From positions 372,001 through 436,000 of the forward strand of contig NZ_VFJE01000055.1 of the NCBI RefSeq assembly GCF_006385255.1: DNA of 64,000 nt. The letters run 5' to 3'. Shown here in pieces: positions 4,813-43,889 of the stretch. The position numbers and the translations under genes are program-made. The notes beneath the pieces were generated by a model, which saw nothing but the letters and a program-made list of their open reading frames with translations, had not been told where the DNA came from and ran no database searches. This stretch comes from Flavobacterium microcysteis (lineage in GTDB: Bacteria > Bacteroidota > Bacteroidia > Flavobacteriales > Flavobacteriaceae). The number at the start of each line of letters is the position of its first letter. Within the stretch, counting starts at the first letter, position 1.

Positions 4813-5406
4813 ATGAAAAAGCCAACAATTTTTGGAAAAGCACTCCTAAGTCTGGGTGTTTTATCTCTGTCTTTAGGAACAATTTCTTGTAAGAATGAAT
4901 CCAAAACAGAAGACCCTAAAGAAGTAGCAGAAGACGAGAACGAAGCCAAATTCGATACTATTAAAGAAGCAGAAAAAGACGCTGAAATTTTGGTTGATGC
5001 TGCGGATTTTGATTTGGAACAAAGAGAACTGGGCAAGTTAGCACAGTCTAAAGGTGTTTCAACTGCCGTTAAAGATTTAGGCAAGATGATGGAAAAACAT
5101 CACAATGAATCTTTTATGAAACTTTCTGCTTTGGCAAAAGAAAAACAAATTTCTATTCCAACAGCAATTACGGAAGATGGGCAGAAAGAATATGATAAGC
5201 TAAGTAAAGCCGATACAAAAAACTTTGACAAGGACTATCTGGATCGTGTTTATAAAGAACATCATGATGCCATAGGAGATTTTACTCAGGATGCTCAAGC
5301 AACAAAGAGCGTTGAAATTAAAGCCTATCTGGAAAGTATGATTGTCACTTTGCAAAACCATCATGATGAAGTAGAAAAATTACAAGCCACACTTGCTAAG
5401 AAATAA
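4813..5406 (+). CDS. DUF4142-domain lipoprotein
   Basis: A 197-residue protein with a lipoprotein signal peptide ending in the lipobox LGTISC at about residue 26, then an acidic linker (KTEDPKEVAEDENEAK). The body is a helical DUF4142 domain with conserved His pairs (KHHNE, EHHD, NHHDE) typical of this ferritin-like predicted fold. It should be anchored in the outer membrane or periplasm. The molecular function of DUF4142 is unknown; genes of this type often lie among envelope-stress genes, which fits the two small membrane proteins that follow. Confidence 0.88.
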   Translation: MKKPTIFGKALLSLGVLSLSLGTISCKNESKTEDPKEVAEDENEAKFDTIKEAEKDAEILVDAADFDLEQRELGKLAQSKGVSTAVKDLGKMMEKHHNESFMKLSALAKEKQISIPTAITEDGQKEYDKLSKADTKNFDKDYLDRVYKEHHDAIGDFTQDAQATKSVEIKAYLESMIVTLQNHHDEVEKLQATLAKK

Positions 5407-20760: not shown

Positions 20761-21783
20761 TTATTTAACGGGCTGATCGTATTTTTTTAATGCCTTTTTA
20801 TGCTTTTCGCTGATTCGTTGTCTAAGACTCTCAGGAGCCAGCACTTCAATTCCTTCAGCAAATCCCATAATCAGTCTTTCGAATTCGTAATTGATATTTA
20901 ATTTCAGGCTGATTACAATACTTCCGCCTTCCCGATGTTCTTCAATTTTTTGGGAGTGGTGAAATGGTTTTGTTATTACATAAGGCGCATTATGAGTGTC
21001 TATCCACAAACGGATATTTCTGACTCTTTGGCCTTCGCTAACCGAAACGCCGATCACGTCTTTGTAGAAATCTTCTGCATTGAAATTCTCTTCAGCATAA
21101 GGATGATTAAAATCAAAATCAACTGCTTCGATACGATCTAACGCCAAGTTGACAATTGGTAAAGCTGCTTTTTTCTTACCAACCAAAAACCAGCGGTTAT
21201 TGAATTCTTTTAAAATGAACGGATGAAAGATAAACTGTTGAGGTTCTCTGGATTTAAACGATTTATAAGTAAGCACCACTACAACTTTTTTGATGATGGC
21301 TTGGTATAGTATATCCAGAAAATGCAATCCTTTTAAGTTCTCATTTTTATCCAGATAGATAACAGGTTGGGTATGCGATTTCTCTGCATAAATCTTATCT
21401 TCAAGACGCTGCAATATATCGGATACATCATTGAATAAAGAAAAATCCTTAAACTGCTTGAGCATAGAAACGGTTTCGGTTAGTACATTGATATCCGTTT
21501 CGGTTAGCGGAATATCGGTTATAGTATATTCCTCGTCTTCATATTTGTAGTACTTTTTCTCATAGACCACAATAGGTGCATTATAGCCCAGTTTTTCACT
21601 TCGCATGAGCTGGATGTCAAGCTGTGTGGTTCTTTTGCTTACAGAATTTTCTTTGCCTTCGTATTCAAATAATGCTTCAGAACAAGCTTCCATCAAATCT
21701 TCCAGAGTCCATTTTCTATACTGGTTCTGTAGGCATTTATCAATGGTTTTATAACGGATAAGGGCATTCTTGTTTTGAGACAT
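20761..21783 (-). CDS. WYL-domain transcriptional regulator (candidate controller of the RNA-repair regulon)
   Basis: A 340-residue protein with an N-terminal winged-helix region (about 1-65, YRKWTLEDLMEACSEAL) and a WYL domain at about 165-245 whose core is HPFILKEFNNRWFLVG, followed by a WYL C-terminal extension. WYL domains bind nucleic acid or nucleotide ligands and often sit in regulators of defence and DNA-damage genes. The gene is divergent from a tRNA-like RNA. The dyad between them overlaps the -33 element of this gene's own promoter and recurs at rtcB and the RING/TerD operon. I infer that this protein binds the dyad and autoregulates. Confidence 0.88.
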   Translation of the reverse strand: MSQNKNALIRYKTIDKCLQNQYRKWTLEDLMEACSEALFEYEGKENSVSKRTTQLDIQLMRSEKLGYNAPIVVYEKKYYKYEDEEYTITDIPLTETDINVLTETVSMLKQFKDFSLFNDVSDILQRLEDKIYAEKSHTQPVIYLDKNENLKGLHFLDILYQAIIKKVVVVLTYKSFKSREPQQFIFHPFILKEFNNRWFLVGKKKAALPIVNLALDRIEAVDFDFNHPYAEENFNAEDFYKDVIGVSVSEGQRVRNIRLWIDTHNAPYVITKPFHHSQKIEEHREGGSIVISLKLNINYEFERLIMGFAEGIEVLAPESLRQRISEKHKKALKKYDQPVK

Positions 21784-21832: not shown

Positions 21833-21864
21833 CAAAAATAGAAATTCTTTTTTACTGCGCAAAA
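21833..21864 (-). promoter_or_regulatory. promoter of the WYL regulator, overlapped by the dyad
   Basis: On the minus strand, -33 TTTTG (21860-21864) and -7 TATTTTTG (21833-21840) are spaced exactly 19 bp. The -33 element lies inside the dyad 21855-21875, so a protein bound there would shut off this promoter. Confidence 0.7.
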
Positions 21865-21892
21865 TAATTGCGTAGTAGAGGAATCATCTTTG
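21855..21892 (+). promoter_or_regulatory. regulon dyad and -7 element upstream of the tRNA-like RNA
   Basis: The dyad CTGCGCAA-AATAA-TTGCGTAG (21855-21875) lies 11 nt before TCTTTG (21887-21892) of a CATCTTTG -7 element. There is no -33 TTG at the usual distance, and the dyad occupies that place. This suggests activator-dependent transcription. The same arrangement recurs at 23662 and 31761. Confidence 0.8.
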
Positions 21893-21898
21893 TACCAT

Positions 21899-22148
21899 CA
21901 AAATAATAAGGCCTTGTAGCTTAAAGGGAAAAGCCTGTGGCAAAATTTACTGGCCATTGAGTTTACGGATATTCCGGTTAGACCTGCGCGGACTAATGGG
22001 TAGAATTTACAGAAGCACCGAAATCGTTAGGGAAAGTAGGGAAGCGTATTTGCAGCCGTAATGCCCGAGAGGGAATGTGAGTTCGAATCTCATCAAGGTT
22101 ACAAAAAAAAGAACCTGACTGATTATAAAAATTGGTCGGGTTCTTTTG
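21899..22148 (+). ncRNA. tRNA-like non-coding RNA with ~140-nt internal insertion
   Basis: The expected transcript runs from about 21899 to the terminator ending near 22148. The body 21910-22101 begins and ends like a tRNA. The acceptor stem is GGCCTTG/CAAGGTT (7 bp, two G-U), the D arm is GCTT-N8-AAGC, and the T arm is GTGAG-TTCGAAT-CTCAT. A discriminator A is followed by CA. Instead of a normal anticodon arm, about 140 nt separate D and T arms. These include small hairpins such as CGGA-TAT-TCCG and CCC-GAGA-GGG (GNRA loop). No long open frame lies within. It may be a Y-RNA-like or decoy RNA. Confidence 0.72.
22105..22147. terminator. terminator of the tRNA-like RNA
   Basis: An AAAAGAACC... 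/ ...GGGTTCTTTT hairpin that starts 4 nt after the tRNA-like body. It can also act for the minus-strand sterol-desaturase-like gene. Confidence 0.8.
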
Positions 22149-23661: not shown

Positions 23662-23699
23662 CTGCGCAAAATAATTGCGTAGGTGCATGTGCATCTTTG
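23662..23699 (+). promoter_or_regulatory. regulon dyad and -7 element upstream of rtcB
   Basis: CTGCGCAA-AATAA-TTGCGTAG (23662-23682), 11 nt, then TCTTTG (23694-23699). From the -7 element onward the sequence CATCTTTGTACCATCAAAA is identical to that at the tRNA-like RNA, so the two promoters are recent relatives. Confidence 0.82.
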
Positions 23700-23711
23700 T
23701 ACCATCAAAAA

Positions 23712-25142
23712 ATGGAAAACATGAAAACACCAATCAACGGAACCGATTTGCTGGAATTAGGATATCCTCAAGGAAGCGTTATCGGGATTGCCTTAAACGT
23801 AAACAAAAAGAGAACTGGTCATACAAAAGAGCAGATGTTGGATTTGTATAAAAAAGTACTGGAGACACCAGAGAATTATATCGACGATGCGCTTTTTGGA
23901 AAATTAGCCACGGCATTAATCGAAAAGTTTGCAGAAAAACCGGAAGATTTTATTGCCCTGAATCCAAACCCGAAAGCCTTTTCGTCTTATGGATTAAACC
24001 ATATTGAAGCAGGTGCTATTGATCAGATGAAAATTGCCATGCAATTGCCTGTTACGGTTGGTGGTGCCCTGATGCCAGATGCACACCAAGGTTATGGATT
24101 GCCAATTGGAGGCGTATTGGCTACACAAAATGCTATTATTCCTTATGGAGTAGGTGTGGATATCGGTTGTAGAATGGCCCTGTCGGTTTATGATATTCCA
24201 GAAGATTTTTATTATGAGAACGAACATAAATTCAAGAGAGAACTGATTGCTCATTCTAAATTTGGTGCTGGACACGGTTTCCAGGGGCAATACAGAGCAG
24301 ACCATGCCGTACTGGAAAGCCCTGATTTTGAAACTAACCCGTTTGTCAAGAACTTAAAAGATAAGGCCTGGTCACAATTAGGATCTTCTGGTGGAGGAAA
24401 CCATTTCGTAGAATTTGGGATTTTAGAGTTTGAATCGGATGATGCTGTTTTGGGTATTTCCAAAGGAAAATATGTTGCTTTGTTGACACATTCGGGTTCC
24501 AGAGGTTTTGGTGCTACTGTTGCCGGGCATTATACTAAAATTGCAAAAGAGTTATGTCCATTACCAGAAGTGGCAAGAAATCTGGCTTATCTGGATATGA
24601 ATTCAGAGATGGGACAAGAGTATTGGATAGCCATGAATTTGGCAGGAGATTATGCTTCGGCTTGCCATGAAATTATCCATAACAAGATGCAGCAGGCATT
24701 AGGTGCTGAGGTATTAGCGAAAGTGGAAAACCATCATAATTTTGCATGGAAAGAAATCTGGAATGGAGAAGAAGTAATTGTACATAGAAAAGGAGCAACT
24801 CCGGCTGCAAAAGGCGTGATGGGAATCATACCGGGAAGTATGACGGCACCGGGATTTCTGGTAAGAGGAAAAGGAGAAGAGAATGCTATCAATTCGGCTT
24901 CGCATGGTGCCGGACGACAGATGAGCAGAGGTCAGGCCTTTAGGACGATTACCAAAAATGAAATGCAGGCCGTCCTAAACCATCATGGCGTAACGCTGAT
25001 TGGTGCCGGACTGGACGAAGCGCCAATGGCCTATAAAGATATCAACCAAGTCATGGCATCGCAACAGGAACTAGTAGATGTAGTAGCGAAATTTACTCCT
25101 AAAATGGTGCGTATGGCAGATGACGGAAGTAGAGAAGATTAA
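23712..25142 (+). CDS. rtcB: RNA-splicing ligase RtcB
   Basis: A 476-residue Mn/GTP-dependent RNA ligase that joins 2',3'-cyclic phosphate (or 3'-phosphate) ends to 5'-OH ends. Such ends are left by many ribotoxins and anticodon nucleases. Family motifs are all present: PDAHQGYGLPIGGV, GVDIGCRMALSV (metal-binding Cys), GGGNHFVEFG, LTHSGSRGFG and SHGAGRQMSR with the guanylated His. The Met at 23712 lies only about 7 nt after the expected transcription start; 23721 (MKTPINGTDLL) is an equally good start. It is controlled by the shared dyad and followed by a terminator. Confidence 0.95.
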   Translation: MENMKTPINGTDLLELGYPQGSVIGIALNVNKKRTGHTKEQMLDLYKKVLETPENYIDDALFGKLATALIEKFAEKPEDFIALNPNPKAFSSYGLNHIEAGAIDQMKIAMQLPVTVGGALMPDAHQGYGLPIGGVLATQNAIIPYGVGVDIGCRMALSVYDIPEDFYYENEHKFKRELIAHSKFGAGHGFQGQYRADHAVLESPDFETNPFVKNLKDKAWSQLGSSGGGNHFVEFGILEFESDDAVLGISKGKYVALLTHSGSRGFGATVAGHYTKIAKELCPLPEVARNLAYLDMNSEMGQEYWIAMNLAGDYASACHEIIHNKMQQALGAEVLAKVENHHNFAWKEIWNGEEVIVHRKGATPAAKGVMGIIPGSMTAPGFLVRGKGEENAINSASHGAGRQMSRGQAFRTITKNEMQAVLNHHGVTLIGAGLDEAPMAYKDINQVMASQQELVDVVAKFTPKMVRMADDGSRED

Positions 25143-25143
25143 A

Positions 25144-25175
25144 AATAGCAGGCTAAAATTGCCTGCTATTCTTTT
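25144..25175. terminator. bidirectional terminator after rtcB
   Basis: AATAGCAGGC / GCCTGCTATT stem with a 7-nt loop followed by CTTTTAT. It overlaps the last codons of the convergent gene. Confidence 0.75.
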
Positions 25176-27493
25176 ATAAACTTACCGTTCCAATTACCAC
25201 GATCTGTAGAAACAGAAATCTGGTATATTCCCGAAGCGAGTAATGAAACATCTATAGATTTTGAATTTTCTGTAATGGTATAGATTGTCTGTCCCAACAT
25301 ATTGGTAATGGCAATTTTTTGTATTTTTGTATTTTGACTGTCGGTAAATTCTAAATGCAATAGGTTTTTCGTAGGATTTGGATACATTTTTATAGCTAAA
25401 GATTTTGACCTATCCGGAACAGATAATTCAGGCGCTAGCGAACCCTCCTGTGTTTTTGCATACAATCCGATAGTACCTGTTTTGGTTAAGCGAAATTCTA
25501 CAAAAGCGATACCATTTTCTGAGCCTGAATTGAAAGGAATAATCTTTTCTGCATTAGGTAAGGCATAAGTTCCGGCAGACATAGTAGCAATTACTGTTGC
25601 TGCGGTATTATTGCCTGACAAAAACCATCCTGCATCTACGATATCTCCAGCAGGAGGCGCATTTACAACTAGGTTGGTATATTCGGATATGGAATAATAA
25701 ACCCGTACAATAATACCGTCATTCACAGTATGGTTTCCGCTATCGGTAATAGAAACAAGACGATTGCTGACTCTGGTGCTGTTAGTGCCGTTACTGATTT
25801 GGTAATAGCCATCGGTAGAAGTAACTCCATTTGGAAGCGCTCCTATAGTATTGTTATTGATTTGTACGTTGGACGGCGAAAAGTTATTGCCATTCGGATT
25901 GACGGTCAGCATTTTTCTGGCACGATTGGTTGGATTCGACCAATCGTAGTTGCATCCCGAATAGGCTAGTGTTGTGGTTGTACCTGATACTGCCAAAAGC
26001 GGAGTTGAGGCAGCTAACGAAGTGTCGCCGGTAATGTTCCAGCCTTTTCCACCGTTGACAACAGGCAACAGGAGGTTAGCACGGGCCGCTGCTCCATCAT
26101 TACAATAGTAAAGTCCTGCTGCGCCTAAAACCCGGCTCTGAGGGCCATTCGCACTAAACCCAACTAATGTTGCATCATAATTGGCAATACTCATGCCGCA
26201 ATTATCAAGCATGCCACCAAAAAAACCTCCTAAAGAGGAATTTAAATTTAAGCGTGCCCCCCACGGTCCCAGATTTTGGTTAAATGCGGAGGCATCCTTA
26301 AACATGGCTTCCATAGAAATTGCTGAAGAAATATCCCAATTGCTAATATCTTGATTGAAGGAAGTTGCCTGTTGAAACATATTCAGCATATTAACAGCTG
26401 AAGAAACATTCCAGTTACCGATATTCTGATTAAAAGCCGAAGCTCCTTTAAACATGGCATTCATATTAATAACATTACCCATATTCCAATTGCCTATGTT
26501 TTGATTGAAGGCTGTGGCTCCGGAAAACAGGGTTGACATATCTGTAACTGCAGCAGTATTCCAGTTCCCGATATTTTGATTGAAAGCAGTAGCATCGCTA
26601 AACATGCCACTCATTGTAGTAACAGTGCTTGTATTCCAATTTCCGATAGGCTGGTTAAAGGCAGTAGCTGCTGTAAACATGCTTCGTGTAATGGTAACAG
26701 CTCCCATATTCCAATTGTTGATATTTTGGTTAAAGGCAGAAGCTTGAGAAAACATACCGTCTGTATTAGTAAGACTGGTAGTATTCCAATTTCCGATGGG
26801 CTGGTTAAAATTCTTGGCGGCATAAAACATATATTCCATAATAGCCACGGCTCCGGTATTCCAGTTTCCAATATTTTGATTGAAATTAGTAGCATTGGCA
26901 AACATGTTACTCATGGTTGTAACGGCAGCTGTATTCCATGTTCCTATATTCTGATTAAAAATTGTTGCACCGCTAAATAAATTGCTCATATTCGTCACGG
27001 TAGCAGTATTCCAATTTCCAATATTGGTCGGGCCATTTAAAGCGATACAAAACTGAAACATTTGACTCATGTTGGTCACACCGGAAAGTACAGGAACATC
27101 GGTTGCCGTAATGTTCATCGTAGTACAGCCATAGAAAGCACTAGCAAAGTTTGTCCAGGCAATGTTTCCCCATTGCGCTATGTTTTTCAGCTTTACTTTA
27201 TCGCCTGAATTATTGAAATAAATTCTTGGAAAAGTTCCGGTAATTTTAACCTGATAATTAGTATTGATTGCCAAACCGGTAAATTGAGCATTTCCAGTAA
27301 CATTATTCAATGTCGTAATGATGGTTGCTGGTGTATCAAGCCTTGCAATGGTAGCGGTGTAGTTATATCCTGTTCCGGTTGTGGGAACTGTAATTGTAGT
27401 ACTAGCGCCCGTATTCCATTCGGTTATAAACTGCCCAAAACTGGGAAAAGTAGCCATCAGGAAAAATACAAGAAGAAGTAGTTTTATTTTCAT
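25166..27493 (-). CDS. BspA-type (DUF285) repeat surface protein with T9SS sorting domain
   Basis: A 775-residue secreted protein. A signal peptide (about 1-20) is followed by roughly a dozen DUF285/BspA units of the form SxMFxxATxFNQxIGNWNT between residues 120 and 430. Next comes a part with a domain resembling choice-of-anchor regions. The C-terminal T9SS type A sorting domain (MYPNPTKNLLHLEF to FIKE) is typical for gliding flavobacteria. It is probably displayed on the cell surface for adhesion. It lies beside a second T9SS protein on the same strand. Confidence 0.88.
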   Translation of the reverse strand: MKIKLLLLVFFLMATFPSFGQFITEWNTGASTTITVPTTGTGYNYTATIARLDTPATIITTLNNVTGNAQFTGLAINTNYQVKITGTFPRIYFNNSGDKVKLKNIAQWGNIAWTNFASAFYGCTTMNITATDVPVLSGVTNMSQMFQFCIALNGPTNIGNWNTATVTNMSNLFSGATIFNQNIGTWNTAAVTTMSNMFANATNFNQNIGNWNTGAVAIMEYMFYAAKNFNQPIGNWNTTSLTNTDGMFSQASAFNQNINNWNMGAVTITRSMFTAATAFNQPIGNWNTSTVTTMSGMFSDATAFNQNIGNWNTAAVTDMSTLFSGATAFNQNIGNWNMGNVINMNAMFKGASAFNQNIGNWNVSSAVNMLNMFQQATSFNQDISNWDISSAISMEAMFKDASAFNQNLGPWGARLNLNSSLGGFFGGMLDNCGMSIANYDATLVGFSANGPQSRVLGAAGLYYCNDGAAARANLLLPVVNGGKGWNITGDTSLAASTPLLAVSGTTTTLAYSGCNYDWSNPTNRARKMLTVNPNGNNFSPSNVQINNNTIGALPNGVTSTDGYYQISNGTNSTRVSNRLVSITDSGNHTVNDGIIVRVYYSISEYTNLVVNAPPAGDIVDAGWFLSGNNTAATVIATMSAGTYALPNAEKIIPFNSGSENGIAFVEFRLTKTGTIGLYAKTQEGSLAPELSVPDRSKSLAIKMYPNPTKNLLHLEFTDSQNTKIQKIAITNMLGQTIYTITENSKSIDVSLLASGIYQISVSTDRGNWNGKFIKE

Positions 27494-30572: not shown

Positions 30573-30815
30573 TTTGGAAGTTTGATTTTTTAGACTTTAT
30601 CTTTGCCGAAGAAAAATGGAAAGAATTTAAGATTTAAGATTTTTGATTTGAGATTTTTGATTTCAGAATTACCAACTAAAAACTATCAACTAACAATTAT
30701 AAACTATAAAGATATGTTTGCTTTTAGATTACATAACATTCATCAAGCTTTCCCGAGACTGGATAGTCGATTTTATAAAACACAGGTGTATGATCATTAC
30801 AGGCTGATAGGATAA
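30573..30815 (+). CDS. small ORF, 33 aa, with promoter (coding status uncertain)
   Basis: A TTTG (30573-30576) and a TATCTTTG -7 box (30598-30605) spaced 21 bp lie in front of a low-complexity leader. An ATG at 30714 then opens a 33-residue basic frame (starts MFAFRLHNIHQAFPRLDSRF) ending at 30815. The end of the frame overlaps the palindrome AGGATAATCTTATCCT, and a terminator follows at 30838. It is upstream of the tRNA-like array and could be its leader region. The coding status is uncertain. Confidence 0.4.
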
Positions 30816-30837
30816 TCTTATCCTGCAGTATGATATG

Positions 30838-30865
30838 AAGCACCTTTAACGAGGTGCTTTTTTTA
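30838..30865 (+). terminator. terminator or attenuator upstream of the tRNA-like array
   Basis: AAGCACCT / AGGTGCTT stem, 6-nt loop, then a T-run. It lies between the 33-aa frame and the tRNA-like array, so read-through here would control the array if it has no promoter of its own. Confidence 0.75.
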
Positions 30866-30918
30866 TGCCCAAAAAGAGAGTAGGCAAATAAAGGTTGTTA
30901 CAACTAGCTCTCCGCAAT

Positions 30919-30992
30919 GACCCTGTAGCTCAATTGAATAGAGCAACTGCTTACGAAGCAGAAGGTTACAGGTTTGAATCCTGTCAGGGTCA
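30919..30992 (+). tRNA. tRNA-Arg(ACG)-like gene
   Basis: A 74-nt cloverleaf with a perfect acceptor stem GACCCTG/CAGGGTC, D arm GCTC/GAGC, anticodon loop TTACGAA (ACG) and T arm ACAGG/CCTGT. Two near-invariant tertiary pairs are altered in a compensated way. C56 is T and G19 is A (A19-U56 in place of G19-C56), while position 15 is A and 48 is T (A15-U48 in place of G15-C48). The first anticodon-stem pair is A-A. This is the first gene of an array of six. Confidence 0.75.
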
Positions 30993-31013
30993 CATAAGTT
31001 CTGGAAAGGAACT

Positions 31014-31086
31014 GGCTCATTGGGGTTACTGGCTAACCTTCCCGACTGTCTCTCGGGAGAAACGAGTTCGATCCTCGTATGAGCCG
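31014..31086 (+). tRNA. tRNA-Asp(GTC)-like gene
   Basis: A 73-nt cloverleaf with acceptor GGCTCAT/ATGAGCC, anticodon stem CCCGA/TCGGG with loop CTGTCTC (anticodon GTC), T arm ACGAG/CTCGT and discriminator G as in tRNA-Asp. Position 37, next to the anticodon, is T although a purine is nearly universal there. The D stem is short (GGGT/ACCT). Confidence 0.7.
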
Positions 31087-31091
31087 CATAT

Positions 31092-31163
31092 GGTGCTTTT
31101 AGTTTATTAGGTAAAACCTCAGATTGTGGTTCTGAAGAACAGGGTTCGATTCCCGAAAGCACC
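31092..31163 (+). tRNA. tRNA-His(GTG)-like gene
   Basis: The anticodon loop is TTGTGGT (GTG) in a TCAGA/TCTGA stem. An encoded G(-1) faces C73, as in tRNA-His. The acceptor is GTGCTTT/AAAGCAC. The T stem is degenerate, with only three G-C pairs around the normal loop TTCGATT, and the gene is about 2 nt shorter than usual. A canonical tRNA-His gene with the same anticodon loop lies at 53839, so this copy is not needed for decoding. Confidence 0.65.
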
Positions 31164-31169
31164 CAAAAA

Positions 31170-31241
31170 CTGGGAAGATAACGGAGGTTGTTTGCCCGCC
31201 TTGGACGCGGGAGGTCGCAGGTTCGAATCCTGCTTCCCAGA
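31170..31241 (+). tRNA. tRNA-Pro(TGG)-like gene
   Basis: A 72-nt cloverleaf with acceptor CTGGGAA/TTCCCAG, anticodon stem CCCGC/GCGGG with loop CTTGGAC (TGG) and T arm GCAGG/CCTGC. The invariant T8 is G, the D stem (TAAC/GTTT) has a mismatch, and A14 is G. These are changes not expected in a normal tRNA core. Confidence 0.65.
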
Positions 31242-31250
31242 CATAGTAAG

Positions 31251-31323
31251 GCAGAAATGGGGGAATGGTATATGCGGCAGATTTAGGATCTGTTTTTTGA
31301 GAGTTCGAGTCTCTCTTTCTGTA
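31251..31323 (+). tRNA. tRNA-Leu(TAG)-like gene lacking the long variable arm
   Basis: A 73-nt cloverleaf with acceptor GCAGAAA/TTTCTGT, anticodon loop TTTAGGA (TAG, Leu) in a GCAGA/TCTGT stem and T arm GAGAG/CTCTC. Bacterial tRNA-Leu is class II with a long variable arm, but here only TTTTT separates anticodon and T stems. The D stem is also broken. It is unlikely to be a normal substrate for leucyl-tRNA synthetase. Confidence 0.65.
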
Positions 31324-31328
31324 CAAAT

Positions 31329-31401
31329 GGAACAGTAGTGTATGTGGTATGCACGTTAGTTTGAAGCACTAAAGGTATTCGTTCAACTCGAATCTGTTCC
31401 A
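31329..31401 (+). tRNA. tRNA-Phe(GAA)-like gene
   Basis: A 73-nt cloverleaf with acceptor GGAACAG/CTGTTCC, D arm GTGT/GCAC, anticodon stem TTAGT/ACTAA with loop TTGAAGC (GAA) and T arm ATTCG/CGAAT. The loop differs from the usual Phe loop at 37-38 (GC instead of AA). It is the last member of the six-gene array, 28 bp before the following reading frame. Confidence 0.68.
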
Positions 31402-31429
31402 CAATGTTTAATTAAAAAGAATACTAATC

Positions 31430-31750
31430 ATGAGACAAGACATCTTAAAAAGGTTTTTGACAAACACGGATGAAACGGGACGTTTTCTGATGAAGTCCAG
31501 GCTAACAGGTATTATTTATTTTGTTGAGCCTATCTATAATGGGAAGACACCCGAATGGGGCGATCTGGATCCGGCTACAAAAAAGCTTACGGGCAATTAT
31601 GGTTCTAAATATACAGGAGCTGTTACAAGGAAAGAGTCGCTCATAACTGAAGAAAATGGGTTTGTAAATATAGGCTATTTCAAAGGAAGTCCCTTTGGAG
31701 CTATTGAACAAAGAGACCGTGAACACCAGAAAAGACTGGGAATTCTATAA
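31430..31750 (+). CDS. hypothetical protein, 106 aa, behind the tRNA-like array
   Basis: I do not recognise the family. It is a soluble protein starting MRQDILKRFLTNTDETGRF, with a Gly/aromatic-rich middle (YNGKTPEWGDLDPATKK, NYGSKYTGAV) and a basic tail (QRDREHQKRLGIL). It has no signal peptide, membrane segment or Cys cluster. It lies 28 bp after the last tRNA-like gene, probably on the same transcript, and ends 11 bp before the regulon dyad at 31761. That context points to a role in the RNA system, but no reaction can be assigned. Confidence 0.7.
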   Translation: MRQDILKRFLTNTDETGRFLMKSRLTGIIYFVEPIYNGKTPEWGDLDPATKKLTGNYGSKYTGAVTRKESLITEENGFVNIGYFKGSPFGAIEQRDREHQKRLGIL

Positions 31751-31760
31751 ATTTAATTCA

Positions 31761-31798
31761 CTGCGCAAAATAATTGCGCAGTGGTTTTGAAATCTTTG
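31761..31798 (+). promoter_or_regulatory. regulon dyad and -7 element of the RING/TerD operon
   Basis: The best dyad of the set: CTGCGCAA-AATAA-TTGCGCAG (31761-31781). It extends by CA/TG on the flanks to a perfect 10-bp inverted repeat, 31759-31783. It is followed after exactly 11 nt by TCTTTG (31793-31798). The transcript should start near 31805 and carry a leader of about 480 nt. Confidence 0.85.
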
Positions 31799-31836
31799 TC
31801 ATGTAATAAAACAACAAGTTCATTGAAATATAAAAT

Positions 31837-31914
31837 AAGTTAGCAAGGTCAAGCGTGAGTTACTTCGAATAACCTTCCAAGATAGCACTTACCCGATTAC
31901 CAGCTAACTTTTTT
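31837..31914 (+). ncRNA. structured leader RNA unit 1 (GGTCAA-N8-TACTTC)
   Basis: The outer stem AAGTTAGC/GCTAACTT (31837-31844 / 31903-31910) is perfect over 8 bp and runs into a T-run. The motif AAGGTCAA-gcgtgagt-TACTTC is at 31845-31866. Its variable part can pair GTGAGT with ACTTAC (31887-31892). This unit could itself be a released RNA or a terminator-like element in the leader. Confidence 0.6.
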
Positions 31915-31922
31915 AAAATTAT

Positions 31923-32041
31923 GGGGCAGTAGCTCAGTAGGTAGAGCAGGTCAGTTTTTGAAATTATCTGAAAAGGTCAACAAAAACTTACTTCTTACAC
32001 TTTTGATGTCCGTGTCGCGGGTTCGAGTCCCGCCTGCTCCA
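31923..32041 (+). ncRNA. tRNA-like RNA with a ~53-nt anticodon-loop replacement (unit 2)
   Basis: A 119-nt RNA with acceptor GGGGCAG/CTGCTCC, D arm GCTC-AGTAGGTA-GAGC, T arm GCGGG-TTCGAGT-CCCGC, discriminator A. A 4-of-5 pair anticodon stem (GGTCA/TGTCC) closes a loop of about 53 nt. The loop holds the motif AAGGTCAA-caaaaact-TACTTC (31973-31994) and a perfect 8-bp helix AGTTTTTG/CAAAAACT. There is no anticodon. It is too short for a group I intron. It may be a decoy, a sensor or a pre-tRNA-like bait. Confidence 0.75.
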
Positions 32042-32047
32042 CAAAGT

Positions 32048-32120
32048 AATGGTCAATAAAAACTTACTTCAGAAAATTGGAATTTCCGGTTCGAATCCGG
32101 CAAGTTTTTAAATCACCATT
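32048..32120 (+). ncRNA. 73-nt mini tRNA-like RNA with T arm only (unit 3)
   Basis: Outer stem AATGGT/ACCATT, inner 9-bp stem TAAAAACTT/AAGTTTTTA, and a canonical T-arm mimic CCGG-TTCGAAT-CCGG at its tip. The motif GGTCAA-taaaaact-TACTTC (32051-32070) occupies the 5' side, and its variable bases form the 5' strand of the 9-bp stem. It has no D or anticodon arm. Confidence 0.68.
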
Positions 32121-32126
32121 AATTTA

Positions 32127-32196
32127 GAAGGTCAAGATTAGCTTACTCCAGGGGAAACCCACCAAATTACATTGATTCAGCTATTCCATTATCTTC
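32127..32196 (+). ncRNA. structured leader RNA unit 4
   Basis: Motif AAGGTCAA-gattagct-TACTCC at 32128-32149, with one change in the last box. GATTAGCT pairs with AGCTATTC (32179-32186) over 7 of 8 positions, and a GGG-GAAA-CCC hairpin follows the motif. A GAAG/CTTC pair can close the unit. Confidence 0.5.
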
Positions 32197-32204
32197 AAGA
32201 ATAA

Positions 32205-32264
32205 AATAAGGTCAAGTGTTTCTTACTTCAAAACTCTTTTAGGTAGAACCAGAAACACAATTAT
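32205..32264 (+). ncRNA. structured leader RNA unit 5
   Basis: Motif AAGGTCAA-gtgtttct-TACTTC at 32208-32229. The variable bases GTGTTTCT pair perfectly with AGAAACAC (32251-32258). The unit ends about 20 nt before the start codon of the RING/TerD gene, so it may also influence translation. Confidence 0.55.
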
Positions 32265-32286
32265 CTAATTTAAAACCAAAAACAAA

Positions 32287-34527
32287 ATGAAAACAAAAGA
32301 ACTATTAAAAATCAGTTTGCGCCAAAATGCAATCTTTATTCCGAATGAATTAATAGCAAACGATAGCAAAATATTGTCTGCTCCAACAGCTGTATTATTA
32401 GCGAATGTTTCGAAACTGGGATTTACTTTTTCAGAAACTTTATTGCATGCTTTGAATAACGTTAATCCAAGCTATAAAATAGAAGTTTTAGAAACTTTAA
32501 AAACAGTTTTAGGTATCGATAAAAATTGGACTCCGTTGGTTAAGGAATGGAATATTCCAACCGGTGAATCTACTTTTGATCATATTGTTACGATGATTGC
32601 TAATGTTTTCAAGACAAACAAAGGAACTGCTTTGCAATGCGGTCATATCATTCCAAAGAATACTTTTCCTTTAGAAAGATATAATGGTTGCCCGTTTTGT
32701 GGTACTCCGTTTGAATTTGGTACTATTGAAAACTTTGGACAAGGGAGCAAATTAAAAGTATTGGAATTGTGGACAGAAAAGCAATTGAATGATTATTTCA
32801 ATTCGTTGTTGCAATCTAAAACGGCTCTTGATGCGACTCAGGTGGGAAGCTTGAAAGTATTATTGCATTATTTGCCTTTGCCAAAAGTAGAAATCGGTAT
32901 GAAAGAAACTTTAGTTTTAGTAATTGATACTTTGATTGAAGAAGATAAAGAAGAAAAAGCAGTTCAATATTTCAAGACTCCAACAGATATCTTACGATAT
33001 TTATGGTTCAAGAAAACGGGCTTGCTACAAATCATAGAGCCAAAAACTATCATAAAAAGAGTTGAAGGAAACGGAAAGCATATTTTTATACCAGCAGATA
33101 ATAGCGCTCAATCTAAATTGATTGCCAAAAATGATTTGAAGCTTAAATACTCTAGAAAAGAATGTCTGATGGTAGCCAATTGGCTAAACAAATTGGATAT
33201 GGATGTGGAGGCAATGTGTGAAATGATGCACCCGAAAAGAGGAATGTGGATTCGCTTTATCAGAGCTTTGCGTTTGGCAGAATACGCTAAAAGAAAAGAC
33301 TTTGAAAAACTAAGCGAATTGTTGGATGTTTTCTATAACCAGGCCTATGATGTTTGGCAGGCAGACGTAAACCGTTACCGTTTAAAAATGGATGCCGAAA
33401 AGACATTTGCTTTGCTAAAGCAGCGTCCGGGTCTATTTGCCCGTTCTTTATTCTCTAACATGCTTTGGTTTGGTTCTGACGAAACAATTGCCCACTTTAC
33501 GGAGATTATCGATAAAATCCCTGCAAGGTTGCTATTCACGCTAAACATGTATGCCCAAAATTATTTTGATAAAAACATACAAAGAAGCGTGAAGCCATTA
33601 GGAGGAACTAATAAGAGAATTGATGCCAATATCTTATTGGGTTTATATGATGAAAAGCAATTAGAGGCGATGAAAAGTCAGATTGAAGATTTGTGTATTC
33701 TGGCAATGAAAAAAAGATTTGCTGCGGTTGCAAATGATAACAAGACAATGTATATCGATCCGCAATTATTCAATATTCCTGTTTCTATTGGAGATAGAAG
33801 TGATACGGTTCAGGATTTGCCAGTTGCTTTGATGGGTGCACGTTTCCCAGTCGAAGGTAATGAAGTGAGACTGTTTATGCAATGGGGTAAAGATTTGCCA
33901 GCCCAGCATTTGGATATGGACTTAAGCTGCCATATTGCTTATGAAAACAAGTTAGATATATGCTCGTTCAGCAGATTAAATACAATCGGTTGTAAGCATA
34001 GTGGTGATATCAGAAGCATACCAAATAAAATTGGTACGGCAGAATATATCAACATCAATATCGATGAGTTGAAAAAGGCGGGTGCAAAGTTTGTGACTTT
34101 TGCGTGTAATGCCTATAGCAATGGAAACATTAGTCCAAACCTTGTTGTAGGATGGATGAATAGTAAACATCCGATGAAAATATCGGAGAAAACAGGCGTA
34201 GCTTATGATCCGTCTTGTGTTGACCATCAGGTAAGAGTAACTCAAAACGTAGCAAAAGGTTTAGTTTTTGGTGTACTCGATGTTGCCAAAAAAGAAATCG
34301 TTTGGTTAGAGATGACTTTTGGAGGTCAGGTTGTTCAAGGTTTGGATTATAAAGGAGTTCAGGCTTTATTATCAAAATTGAGCAGTAAATTGAATATCGG
34401 TAGTCTGCTACAACTTAAAGCAGAAGCTCAAGGTTTGGAGATTATCGAATCCTTAAATGCGGATGAAGTTTATGATGCTCAATGGGCGATAAATGCAGCT
34501 GCTGTAACGCAGTTATTAATAGATTAA
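32287..34527 (+). CDS. RING-like / TerD-like multidomain protein (MXAN_6230/SCO0854-type)
   Basis: A 746-residue cytoplasmic protein. A small zinc-binding, RING-like cluster lies at C118-x-H120...C135-P-F-C138. A long helical middle part spans about 200-500. The C-terminal part (about 520-670, HLDMDLSCHIAYE and AKFVTFACNAYSNG) resembles TerD-family beta-sandwich domains. The architecture recalls proteins annotated as MXAN_6230/SCO0854-family RING proteins, which have been placed near RNA-repair genes; that assignment is from memory. It is the first gene after the dyad promoter and its structured leader. It may be the scaffold that recognises the RNAs. Confidence 0.7.
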   Translation: MKTKELLKISLRQNAIFIPNELIANDSKILSAPTAVLLANVSKLGFTFSETLLHALNNVNPSYKIEVLETLKTVLGIDKNWTPLVKEWNIPTGESTFDHIVTMIANVFKTNKGTALQCGHIIPKNTFPLERYNGCPFCGTPFEFGTIENFGQGSKLKVLELWTEKQLNDYFNSLLQSKTALDATQVGSLKVLLHYLPLPKVEIGMKETLVLVIDTLIEEDKEEKAVQYFKTPTDILRYLWFKKTGLLQIIEPKTIIKRVEGNGKHIFIPADNSAQSKLIAKNDLKLKYSRKECLMVANWLNKLDMDVEAMCEMMHPKRGMWIRFIRALRLAEYAKRKDFEKLSELLDVFYNQAYDVWQADVNRYRLKMDAEKTFALLKQRPGLFARSLFSNMLWFGSDETIAHFTEIIDKIPARLLFTLNMYAQNYFDKNIQRSVKPLGGTNKRIDANILLGLYDEKQLEAMKSQIEDLCILAMKKRFAAVANDNKTMYIDPQLFNIPVSIGDRSDTVQDLPVALMGARFPVEGNEVRLFMQWGKDLPAQHLDMDLSCHIAYENKLDICSFSRLNTIGCKHSGDIRSIPNKIGTAEYININIDELKKAGAKFVTFACNAYSNGNISPNLVVGWMNSKHPMKISEKTGVAYDPSCVDHQVRVTQNVAKGLVFGVLDVAKKEIVWLEMTFGGQVVQGLDYKGVQALLSKLSSKLNIGSLLQLKAEAQGLEIIESLNADEVYDAQWAINAAAVTQLLID

Positions 34528-34583: not shown

Positions 34584-35132
34584 ATGAAAACAACAGATAA
34601 AATTATAATTATAGACCTTGAAGCTACGTGCTGGAAAGGTCAAATTCCCGAGGGGGAAGTAAATGAAATTATAGAAATAGGCTTGAGCCTGTTAGACACA
34701 GCTACAGGCGAAATTTCTAAAAATCAGGGTATTTTAATCAAGCCGCAACGTTCAACGGTTAGTCCGTTTTGTACGGAACTTACAACTATAACCCAGGATT
34801 TATTGGATAAAGAAGGCGTGTTGTTTGAAGAAGCCATTGAAAAACTTATTGACGAATACAATCCGGATTTATATACCTGGGCGAGTTACGGTCAATACGA
34901 TATAAATATGCTGAAAAGACAATGCATGTCCTTTGGCGTGAACTATCCAATGGGTAACGACCATATTAATGTGAAGGTTTTGTTTGCTGAAACAAAAGGA
35001 TTGTCAAAACCAACAGGTATGAATGGCGCTCTGCATATTCTTGAAATACCACTTGAAGGAACACACCACAGAGGTGTTGATGATGCAAAGAATATTGCTA
35101 AAATATTGCATTGGTGCCTAAAGAACCAATAA
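34584..35132 (+). CDS. ERI1/KapD-like DEDDh 3'-5' exonuclease
   Basis: A 182-residue single-domain exonuclease. DEDDh residues are in place: D11-x-E13 in IIDLEATCW, D106 in YGQYDINML, and H162...D167 in HHRGVDDAKNIAKI. The last motif is very close to the ERI1 form, a family that trims RNA 3' ends. It lies 57 bp after the RING/TerD gene in the dyad-controlled operon and is followed by a strong terminator. I infer that it trims damaged 3' ends or degrades RNAs that RtcB cannot repair. Confidence 0.88.
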   Translation: MKTTDKIIIIDLEATCWKGQIPEGEVNEIIEIGLSLLDTATGEISKNQGILIKPQRSTVSPFCTELTTITQDLLDKEGVLFEEAIEKLIDEYNPDLYTWASYGQYDINMLKRQCMSFGVNYPMGNDHINVKVLFAETKGLSKPTGMNGALHILEIPLEGTHHRGVDDAKNIAKILHWCLKNQ

Positions 35133-43733: not shown

Positions 43734-43889
43734 AGTATGAATTCTGCCCTCTAAAATACAGTGTTTTTACTTATTAAAAACAGGGAATAGCCTGATAATC
43801 ATTAAAATAACTGTTTCTACATTTGATTATGATTAATGCGTAAGCCGAAAAGCAAAAATAGAGTAGGCATCATATAAAACATAATTAGT

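What the first reader, a model, noticed from the sequence alone, without database searches (positions are those of the whole stretch)
31837..32264. Array of five RNA units with an apparently undescribed motif GGTCAA-N8-TACTTC in the leader of the RING/TerD gene
Five copies at 31845, 31973, 32049, 32128 and 32208 keep both boxes and the 8-nt gap (one change in copy 4, one flanking change in copy 3). In copies 2, 3 and 5 the variable 8 nt form a perfect helix with a local complement (AGTTTTTG; AAGTTTTTA; AGAAACAC); copies 1 and 4 have weaker partners. Conserved boxes framing a helix whose sequence varies but whose pairing is kept point to a selected RNA family. The last copies are spaced 76-80 nt, like a tandem array of RNAs of tRNA size. 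I know of no described RNA family with this pattern.
Basis: partly seen in the sequence, partly recalled or inferred. Interest (0 to 1): 0.95.

Follow-up and report, generated by a model that had tools for sequence, protein, structure and literature searches.

The report
Y-RNA-like tRNA-mimic array beside Ro60-like protein
A row of small structured RNAs, one of them built into a tRNA body, sits next to a gene for a protein whose core is predicted to fold like the human Ro60 autoantigen, and the pair turns up in many bacteria and some phages beside RNA-repair genes, so it looks like a widespread and largely undescribed RNA-protein machine.

Summary
Five GGTCAA-N8-TACTTC units lead the RING/TerD gene, and each N8 pairs locally (7-8 of 8 pairs). 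The array precedes this gene in 39 of 39 fetched same-genus loci holding it, and in 30 of 30 Bacteroidota loci scanned with a covariance model (7 outside its training set). In 296 sampled genomes RNA and protein occur in the same 8. Covariation is very strong: lower stem, CAA/NAUU loop, 8-bp stem, UACUUC. Unit 2 is the module circularly permuted inside a tRNA body. Rfam 15 matches only tRNA/tmRNA models there. The protein's middle domain, modelled alone, has Ro60/Rsr structures as its six best PDB alignments, but at moderate Z and without sequence similarity. Neighbouring genes include WYL, RtcB, RNA ligases, PNKP, RlaP and exonuclease; a palindrome present three times in this genome precedes the array and RtcB. 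Distant homologues (about 25% identity) in Vibrio, Variovorax, Streptomyces, Niallia and three phages have similar UMCUUC hairpins; 5 of 14 such loci do not. Best reading: a divergent Ro60/Y-RNA-like RNP of RNA-repair islands. There are no expression or binding data, and a 2016 review that may describe part of it could not be read.

The parts
31761..31781 (.). Palindrome CTGCGCAAAATAATTGCGCAG, likely operator of the array promoter; near-identical copies at 21855-21875 and 23662-23682
   Evidence: Only 3 matches (up to 3 mismatches) in the 4.06-Mb genome, all in this window; 0 for the reversed control pattern. A looser palindrome lies within 250 nt upstream of the first unit in 68 of 77 loci; in the window 5 of 255 bins of 250 nt have one, these three included.
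31837..31910 (+). RNA unit 1 (forward type): lower stem AAGTTAGC/GCTAACTT, GGTCAA, N8, TACTTC, partner, GATTACC
   Evidence: z -3.5; R1 45.7 bits; unit is in the training set
31923..32041 (+). RNA unit 2: tRNA body (acceptor, D and T arms) whose anticodon region holds the permuted module 31953-31994 (AGTTTTTG-AAATTATC-loop-GGTCAA-CAAAAACT-TACTTC)
   Evidence: Rfam tRNA 47 bits; fold z -2.9; ARAGORN makes no tRNA call here; letters checked
32041..32125 (+). RNA unit 3 (forward type) with a T-arm-like stretch (GGTTCGAATCC) in the apical part
   Evidence: z -3.3; 55.2 bits; in the training set
32120..32201 (+). RNA unit 4 (forward type), one change in the second box; weakest copy here
   Evidence: (z -1.4); found by R1 (47.4 bits) but not listed; in the training set
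32200..32273 (+). RNA unit 5 (forward type), ends 13 nt before the start codon
   Evidence: R1 75 bits (in the training set); fold z -1.7
32287..34527 (+). RING-like / Ro60-like helical domain / TerD protein, 746 aa
   Evidence: NF041916 partial; TerD Z 12-15; residues 157-485, six Ro60/Rsr rows on top
23697..25142 (+). RtcB RNA ligase, with the same palindrome just upstream
   Evidence: Pfam RtcB 3.7e-82; palindrome 23662-23682
20761..21783 (-). WYL/WCX regulator, divergent from the first palindrome; candidate regulator
   Evidence: a WYL-type gene lies upstream in 19 of 39 loci compared
34584..35132 (+). RNase_T/DEDDh 3'-5' exonuclease
   Evidence: relatives in 7 of 39 loci compared
30919..31402 (+). 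Cluster of six tRNA genes (Arg, Asp, His, Pro, Leu, Phe) upstream of the array

Best explanation
The units are small noncoding RNAs of one family, transcribed from the palindrome-controlled promoter ahead of unit 1 and processed from the leader of the protein's transcript. The conserved module (GGU lower stem, CAA/NAUU internal loop, 8-bp stem, UUACUUC) is a protein-binding handle. It is bound by the protein encoded next door, whose middle domain is a Ro60-like helical ring. The rest of each RNA is variable and often mimics tRNA: a tRNA body carrying the handle in place of the anticodon arm, or a T arm in the apical loop. The particle works like a Ro60-Y RNA particle inside an RNA-repair regulon: the tRNA-like parts either bring tRNA-acting enzymes (RtcB, ligases, exonuclease) to the ring or act as decoys for tRNA-cutting nucleases. 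Shown here by computation: the RNA family, its structure, its linkage to the protein, the repair-gene context and the shared palindrome. Inferred: transcription and processing into separate RNAs, binding, the ring function, and the tether or decoy role.
For: RNA family: covariation; 171 of 186 units in 40 loci (39 and the window) have at least 7 of 8 pairs (partners were picked as the best pairing beside an ATTAYC-like box); partner-swap control on the units, forward 537 of 584 pairs against 302.6 (maximum 348) and permuted 143 of 160 against 111.6 (maximum 126) (same caveat). Linkage: 39 of 39 loci with the gene; the same 8 of 296 genomes for protein and RNA, while 10 other genomes of the genus in the sample have neither; 87 of 87 model hits sense and upstream in 30 of 30 loci, 7 of those loci outside the training set. 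Ro60-like domain: model pLDDT 89; six best aligned rows Ro60/Rsr, Z 7.5-8.2, 246-257 residues of 329; the next, unrelated row has Z 7.1 over 95 residues. Context: WYL, RtcB, RNase_T, T4-type RNA ligase, PNKP ligase and kinase/phosphatase, RlaP, Rnl2; RtcB in 18 of 39 loci. Regulon: palindrome. Cross-phylum: R1, trained on Bacteroidota only, finds three units beside the homologue in Rhodococcus phage Weasels2 (E 6e-7, 8e-5, 0.002), which also has RtcB and tRNAs nearby.
Against: No sequence similarity to TROVE: no Pfam TROVE match, hhalign probability 0.1-0.7%. Foldseek alone listed no Ro60 in its best 50 for the whole protein or the domain. The protein has TerD, not vWA, at its end. No expression, processing or binding data. 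Four of 14 distant-homologue loci show no flanking box (L233, L237, L238, L239), one (L240) has only unconvincing ones, and only 13 of 24 flanking sites have a run of 7 or more pairs. R1 finds nothing near 13 true TROVE genes. All 8 genomes of the co-occurrence sample are of one genus.
Confidence: 0.65

Rival explanations
1. The array is a cis-acting mRNA leader: the protein binds the hairpins in its own message and controls its own synthesis, and no separate RNAs exist.
For: The last unit of the window scores best with R1 and ends 13 nt before the start codon; all model hits in Bacteroidota are sense and upstream.
Against: Units lie downstream of the gene in Vibrio, Variovorax, Niallia and phage Weasels2; several units carry whole tRNA bodies; in L151 and L154 the last unit found ends about 140 and 105 nt before the gene match. 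An autoregulatory role beside a free-RNA role is not excluded.
Confidence: 0.15
2. The units are sponges or decoys for tRNA-cutting nucleases; the protein only stores or shields them, with no Ro60-like ring function.
For: tRNA bodies whose anticodon arm is replaced, neighbouring tRNA gene clusters and ligases. A passage of PMC7790460 suggests a decoy role for YrlA.
Against: Most units have no complete tRNA body; the conserved part is the handle, not the tRNA part.
Confidence: 0.15
3. DNA-level repeats: binding or recombination sites that happen to form hairpins.
For: Spacing of 76-80 nt between the last four units; a tRNA cluster nearby.
Against: Both-side changes that keep pairs, permuted copies that keep the pairing, and sense orientation only.
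Confidence: 0.02

Closest known systems
Ro60 (Rsr) with Y RNA / YrlA
   Same: RNA with a basal stem in two parts separated by a conserved unpaired element, a variable effector part that can mimic tRNA (D, T and acceptor arms), encoded next to a protein with a Ro60-like helical domain, often near RtcB (passages of PMC8394870; PMC4030889; PMC7790460).
   Different: Different conserved letters and no Rfam match; arrays of 2-7 units in the 39 loci; tRNA bodies with the handle as a permuted insert; protein without TROVE sequence signal or vWA, with RING-like and TerD parts.
MXAN_6230/SCO0854 family RING domain protein (NF041916)
   Same: Same protein superfamily by sequence: NCBIfam partial hit 4.5e-36, tblastn hits, and UMCUUC hairpins beside the Streptomyces and Kitasatospora members.
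   Different: The window protein scores 124 bits against a cut-off of 600; the model's name says nothing of RNA.
RNA repair systems with SPFH/Band-7 and a 'novel tRNA-like molecule' (Burroughs and Aravind 2016; abstract recalled, paper not readable)
   Same: Band-7 genes just upstream of the array in L047 and L050, the two loci tested; RtcB, RlaP and ligases nearby.
   Different: Whether their tRNA-like RNA is unit 2 could not be checked; the array of handle units and the Ro60-like domain are not known to me from it.

Membership tests
Ro60/TROVE protein family | Matches the TROVE sequence profile | tested here: not met
   No PF05731 hit; hhalign against seven Bacteroidota TROVE proteins, probability 0.1-0.7%
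Ro60/TROVE protein family | HEAT-like helical ring fold | tested here: inconclusive
   Six best aligned rows are Ro60/Rsr, Z 7.5-8.2, 246-257 of 329 residues; Z is in the range where helical repeats can match by arrangement; no Foldseek match with E up to 0.001
Ro60/TROVE protein family | C-terminal vWA domain (recalled) | tested here: not met
   C-terminal part aligns with TerD structures, Z 12-15; no vWA match in Pfam
Y RNA / YrlA | Matches an Rfam model of the family | tested here: not met
   Rfam 15 at gathering thresholds: only tRNA, tRNA-Sec, tmRNA and permuted tmRNA in the array and in the relatives' loci scanned; nothing of the kind to E 10 on 30700-32300
Y RNA / YrlA | Basal stem in two parts with a conserved unpaired element between them | tested here: met
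   Lower stem, CAA/NAUU loop, upper stem. The conserved letters differ; whether a base plays the part of the bulged C9 named in PMC4030889 was not tested.
Y RNA / YrlA | tRNA-like module with D, T and acceptor arms | tested here: met
   Met for unit 2 and for nine long tRNA bodies in 5 of 10 relatives' loci; phage Weasels2 unit at 5274-5405 folds with T arm, closed acceptor stem and D arm inside the basal stem. Not met for units 1, 4 and 5; unit 3 has only a T-arm-like stretch.
Y RNA / YrlA | Bound by the Ro60-type protein | not testable with these tools
   Only co-occurrence and adjacency
tRNA | Complete cloverleaf with a usable anticodon | tested here: not met
   Unit 2 holds an insert in the anticodon region and is not called by ARAGORN
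Bacterial RNA-repair system | Linked RNA ligase with end-healing or regulatory genes | tested here: met
   RtcB and WYL in the window; RtcB, Rnl1/Rnl2-type ligases, PNKP, RlaP and WYL by Pfam in other loci of the system

The most novel reading that the evidence does not exclude
An unrecognised family of Ro60/Y-RNA-like particles spans at least Bacteroidota, Pseudomonadota, Actinomycetota, Bacillota and several phages. One RNA handle (stem, internal loop, stem, UMCUUC) is recognised whichever way it is connected, including as a circularly permuted insert in the anticodon region of tRNA bodies, and a RING/Ro60-like/TerD protein uses these RNAs as interchangeable tRNA-mimic adaptors in RNA repair or in phage-host conflict over tRNA.
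Probability: 0.55. Interest if true: 0.93.

Novelty: new variant of a known kind. Interest (0 to 1): 0.88.

Why it matters
Ro60 and Y RNAs are long-known small RNPs, yet what they do is still debated. A second, far diverged version with several RNAs per locus, tied to RNA ligases and carried by phages, would give a comparative handle on which features matter, and genetically tractable bacteria to test them in. It would also put a large family of proteins named only MXAN_6230/SCO0854 RING domain-containing into a testable role, and add an RNA family to Rfam that links tRNA mimicry with RNA repair.

Tried and rejected
Single-sequence z-scores were weak for units 4 and 5, so the case rests on covariation, not on folding energy. 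The loose motif search with two mismatches was near chance. Sequence homology with TROVE was sought three times by hhalign and by Pfam and not found; Foldseek with the whole protein and with the domain listed no Ro60 in its best 50; Ro60 rows appeared only in the second look by VIA-align. R1 near 13 TROVE genes found nothing, so these are not evidently the Y RNAs of the ordinary Ro60 of the phylum. The IMG/VR scan for the protein found none, although GenBank phages have distant homologues. PADLOC gave no match for the protein. A tRNA-like stretch at 21910-22104 shows no fold signal (z -0.1).

Weak points of the distant units: MAFFT alignment A6 misregisters the 3' strands and was not used for counts. 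In one search, 13 of 24 flanking sites have a run of 7 or more pairs, and single-site shuffles were often not significant (for example Variovorax 495 and 462 of 500, Streptomyces halstedii 107 of 500). The count used 17 of the 24 sites (seven left out: three of L240, one of L230, three of L232, all with runs of 4-6 pairs), chose the partner by pairing and includes one column that is unpaired in most rows, so it is not an independent test. The distant units rest on repetition, the shared box, lower stems and the R1 hits in Weasels2. R1 did not find the Weasels2 unit that holds the permuted tRNA, nor any unit in Variovorax, Vibrio, Streptomyces or Niallia. In one search a few partners assigned at long distance (for example L067 -441, L070 -317) are probably wrong. 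R1 matches its training units by construction; only loci outside A3 count as tests, and the seven are Flavobacterium loci, as are some training loci.

Papers: searches (lists capped: 20 of 109 papers shown, 12 of 15, 12 of 27) showed no paper on this RNA; the names MXAN_6230 and SCO0854 gave none. Seen: listings and starts of abstracts; passages of PMC7790460, PMC7824862, PMC7159879, PMC4030889 and PMC8394870. Absence from print is claimed only for those searches of that open-licence library.

Full report
WHAT IS THERE. The window lies in a 4.06-Mb genome of genus Flavobacterium: a same-genus contig has the length of a named Flavobacterium contig (G566:C8 and NZ_FRBX01000003.1, 714,232 bases). 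Between a 106-aa gene (31430-31750) and the RING/TerD gene (32287-34527) lie five units, each with GGTCAA, eight variable bases and TACTTC or TACTCC. In units 1, 3, 4 and 5 the eight bases pair with a stretch that begins 26-38 nt downstream of them, which is followed by a second box (ATTAYC, in unit 3 ATCACC) and by the 3' half of a lower stem. The GGT of the first box pairs with the last three bases of the second. The resulting hairpin is lower stem, internal loop CAA/NATT, upper stem of 8 bp, then UACUUC at the foot of the apical loop.

UNIT 2 IS PERMUTED. In unit 2 the partner lies upstream. Its order is tRNA acceptor strand, D arm, AGTTTTTG-AAATTATC, a short loop, GGTCAA-CAAAAACT-TACTTC, then the rest of the anticodon region, T arm and acceptor strand (31923-32041; letters checked). 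Rfam's tRNA model scores it at 47 bits; ARAGORN does not call it. The same handle is thus closed at its other end and plugged into a tRNA. In ten relatives' loci the tRNA model finds nine comparable long tRNA bodies of 115-137 nt, in L104, L152, L161 (two), L162 and L164 (four); in the other five (L144, L147, L148, L155, L157) it finds no such body above threshold. The L164 example folds unaided as a cloverleaf with the handle between the D and T arms (z -3.95).

CONSERVATION. In 398 genomes of the genus 59 have a protein match; one of these, at 29% over 111 residues, is probably another TerD protein. Of 40 loci fetched with flanks, 39 hold the gene, and all 39 have 2-7 units within about 760 nt upstream. 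In GTDB genomes 415 stretches encode relatives, of which the best 80 were kept. The 20 of these outside genus Flavobacterium (Aquimarina, Tenacibaculum, Emticicia, Cytophaga, Saprospiraceae, Taibaiella, Dysgonomonas, Microscilla and others) were read by eye and all 20 carry units; the other 335 were not seen. Fifty-three forward units from 26 sources were aligned. RNAalifold chose the same two helices. Counting 17 pairs gave 85.7% standard pairs against 60.2% shuffled, 233 both-side cells against 86.3, and covariation 0.637 against 0.190, with every slide far below; the number of pairs with any both-side change (13) does not exceed the shuffles (12.9). The upper stem is paired in 94% of cells, the lower in 78%.

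LINKAGE. Model R1 over 30 loci gave 87 hits, all on the sense strand and all upstream of the gene, in 30 of 30 loci. Twenty-three of these loci contributed training units, so the clean test is 7 of 7, all Flavobacterium. In 296 genomes sampled across the phylum R1 hits 8 genomes, exactly the 8 that have the protein in the sample; all 8 are of the window's genus, and 10 others of that genus have neither. At least two of the eight, the window's genome and G285 (contig of L104), contributed training units. No R1 hit lies near 13 true TROVE genes of the phylum.

THE PROTEIN. It has a RING-like Zn motif below Pfam's cut-off, a helical middle and a TerD-like end. The whole-protein model is fair (pLDDT 74); its C-terminal part aligns with TerD structures at Z 12-15, and weak Ro60 rows appear for the middle. 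The middle domain alone (residues 157-485, 29-sequence alignment) models well (pLDDT 89, pTM 0.75). Against this: Foldseek alone does not list Ro60 in its best 50, hhalign sees nothing, and Z near 8 can arise from a common helical arrangement. I treat 'Ro60-like fold' as likely, not shown.

CONTEXT AND CONTROL. In 39 loci compared for shared genes (20 outside Flavobacterium, 19 within) a WYL-type regulator is upstream in 19, RtcB is near in 12 and an RNase_T exonuclease in 7; RNA ligases of three types, PNKP kinase/phosphatase and RlaP occur in 3-6 each. RtcB lies in 18 of the 39 gene-bearing loci, another set. Band-7 genes lie just upstream of the array in L047 and L050, the two tested. Several loci have tRNA gene clusters. 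A 21-bp palindrome occurs three times in the whole genome, all in this window: beside the WYL gene (21855), before RtcB (23662) and before the array (31761), with none for the control pattern. A looser form lies within 250 nt before the first unit in 68 of 77 loci, against 5 of 255 bins of the window, these three included. The same element precedes RtcB in several other loci (assigned by position and first codons) and the T4-type ligase gene of L146. This looks like a regulon, with WYL as the obvious candidate regulator (inference).

OTHER PHYLA. Homologues of about 25% identity are on plasmids and in phages. R1, built from Bacteroidota only, finds three units downstream of the homologue in Rhodococcus phage Weasels2 (E 6e-7, 8e-5, 0.002), in a region with tRNAs and RtcB. 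A fourth Weasels2 unit, not found by R1, folds with a T arm, an acceptor stem closed by a loop and a D arm inside the basal stem, which resembles the layout described for YrlA (YrlA from passages). In Vibrio, Variovorax, Streptomyces, Kitasatospora, Niallia, Lactobacillus phage LpeD and a fecal phage the box reads UMCUUC, and lower stem, internal loop and upper stem recur; R1 does not find those of Vibrio, Variovorax, Streptomyces and Niallia, and Kitasatospora, LpeD and the fecal phage were not given to R1. In 14 such loci 24 sites of the short pattern fall in 17,360 nt of flank and 28 in 73,535 nt elsewhere; 13 of the 24 have a run of 7 or more pairs. Seventeen chosen units give 114 of 136 upper-stem pairs against 66.8 when partners are swapped (maximum 86 in 2000; partners were chosen by pairing). 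Misses: L233, L237, L238 and L239 have no site, and L240 none convincing.

READING. The defining property is a handle whose sequence is kept in the loops and whose stems vary freely, attached to variable, often tRNA-like cargo, and found next to one protein in the loci seen. That is how Ro60 and Y RNAs are built. The likely role is an RNP of RNA-repair islands that handles broken or misfolded tRNA-like RNA, by tethering repair enzymes or by decoying nucleases. My odds: the RNA family about 0.97, linkage to the protein about 0.85, Ro60-like ring about 0.7, the precise mechanism about 0.4.

NOVELTY. No Rfam family matches apart from tRNA and tmRNA models, and no paper in the open library came up (lists partly capped). 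The main risk is the 2016 review that I could not open. By its abstract, as I recall it, it reports Y RNAs with TROVE proteins and a novel tRNA-like molecule with Band-7 proteins; unit 2 beside Band-7 genes could be that molecule. I therefore call this a new variant of a known kind, not categorically new.

Noticed in passing
21910-22104: A tRNA-like stretch (matching acceptor ends, D-arm-like and T-arm-like parts, by eye) with an insert of about 120 nt, directly after the first palindrome. Fold z is -0.1 and Rfam gives no match above threshold.
   Followed up: partly
43835-43869: DUF805b RNA by Rfam.
   Followed up: no
31430-31750: A 106-aa protein without Pfam or NCBIfam match lies between the tRNA cluster and the array; relatives lie within the flanks of 3 of 39 loci.
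   Followed up: no
L173 (G057): One genome of the same genus has a true TROVE (Ro60) gene and neither the protein nor an R1 hit. In another genome of the class (L175) an RtcB-like ORF (recognised by eye only) sits right before the TROVE gene.
   Followed up: partly
L232 (phage record MT835874): tmRNA and permuted-tmRNA model hits and several tRNAs upstream of the homologue in a fecal phage record.
   Followed up: no
25166-27493: Large protein on the minus strand with many repeats of the form MFxxAxxFNQxIGNWNT between RtcB and the array.
   Followed up: no
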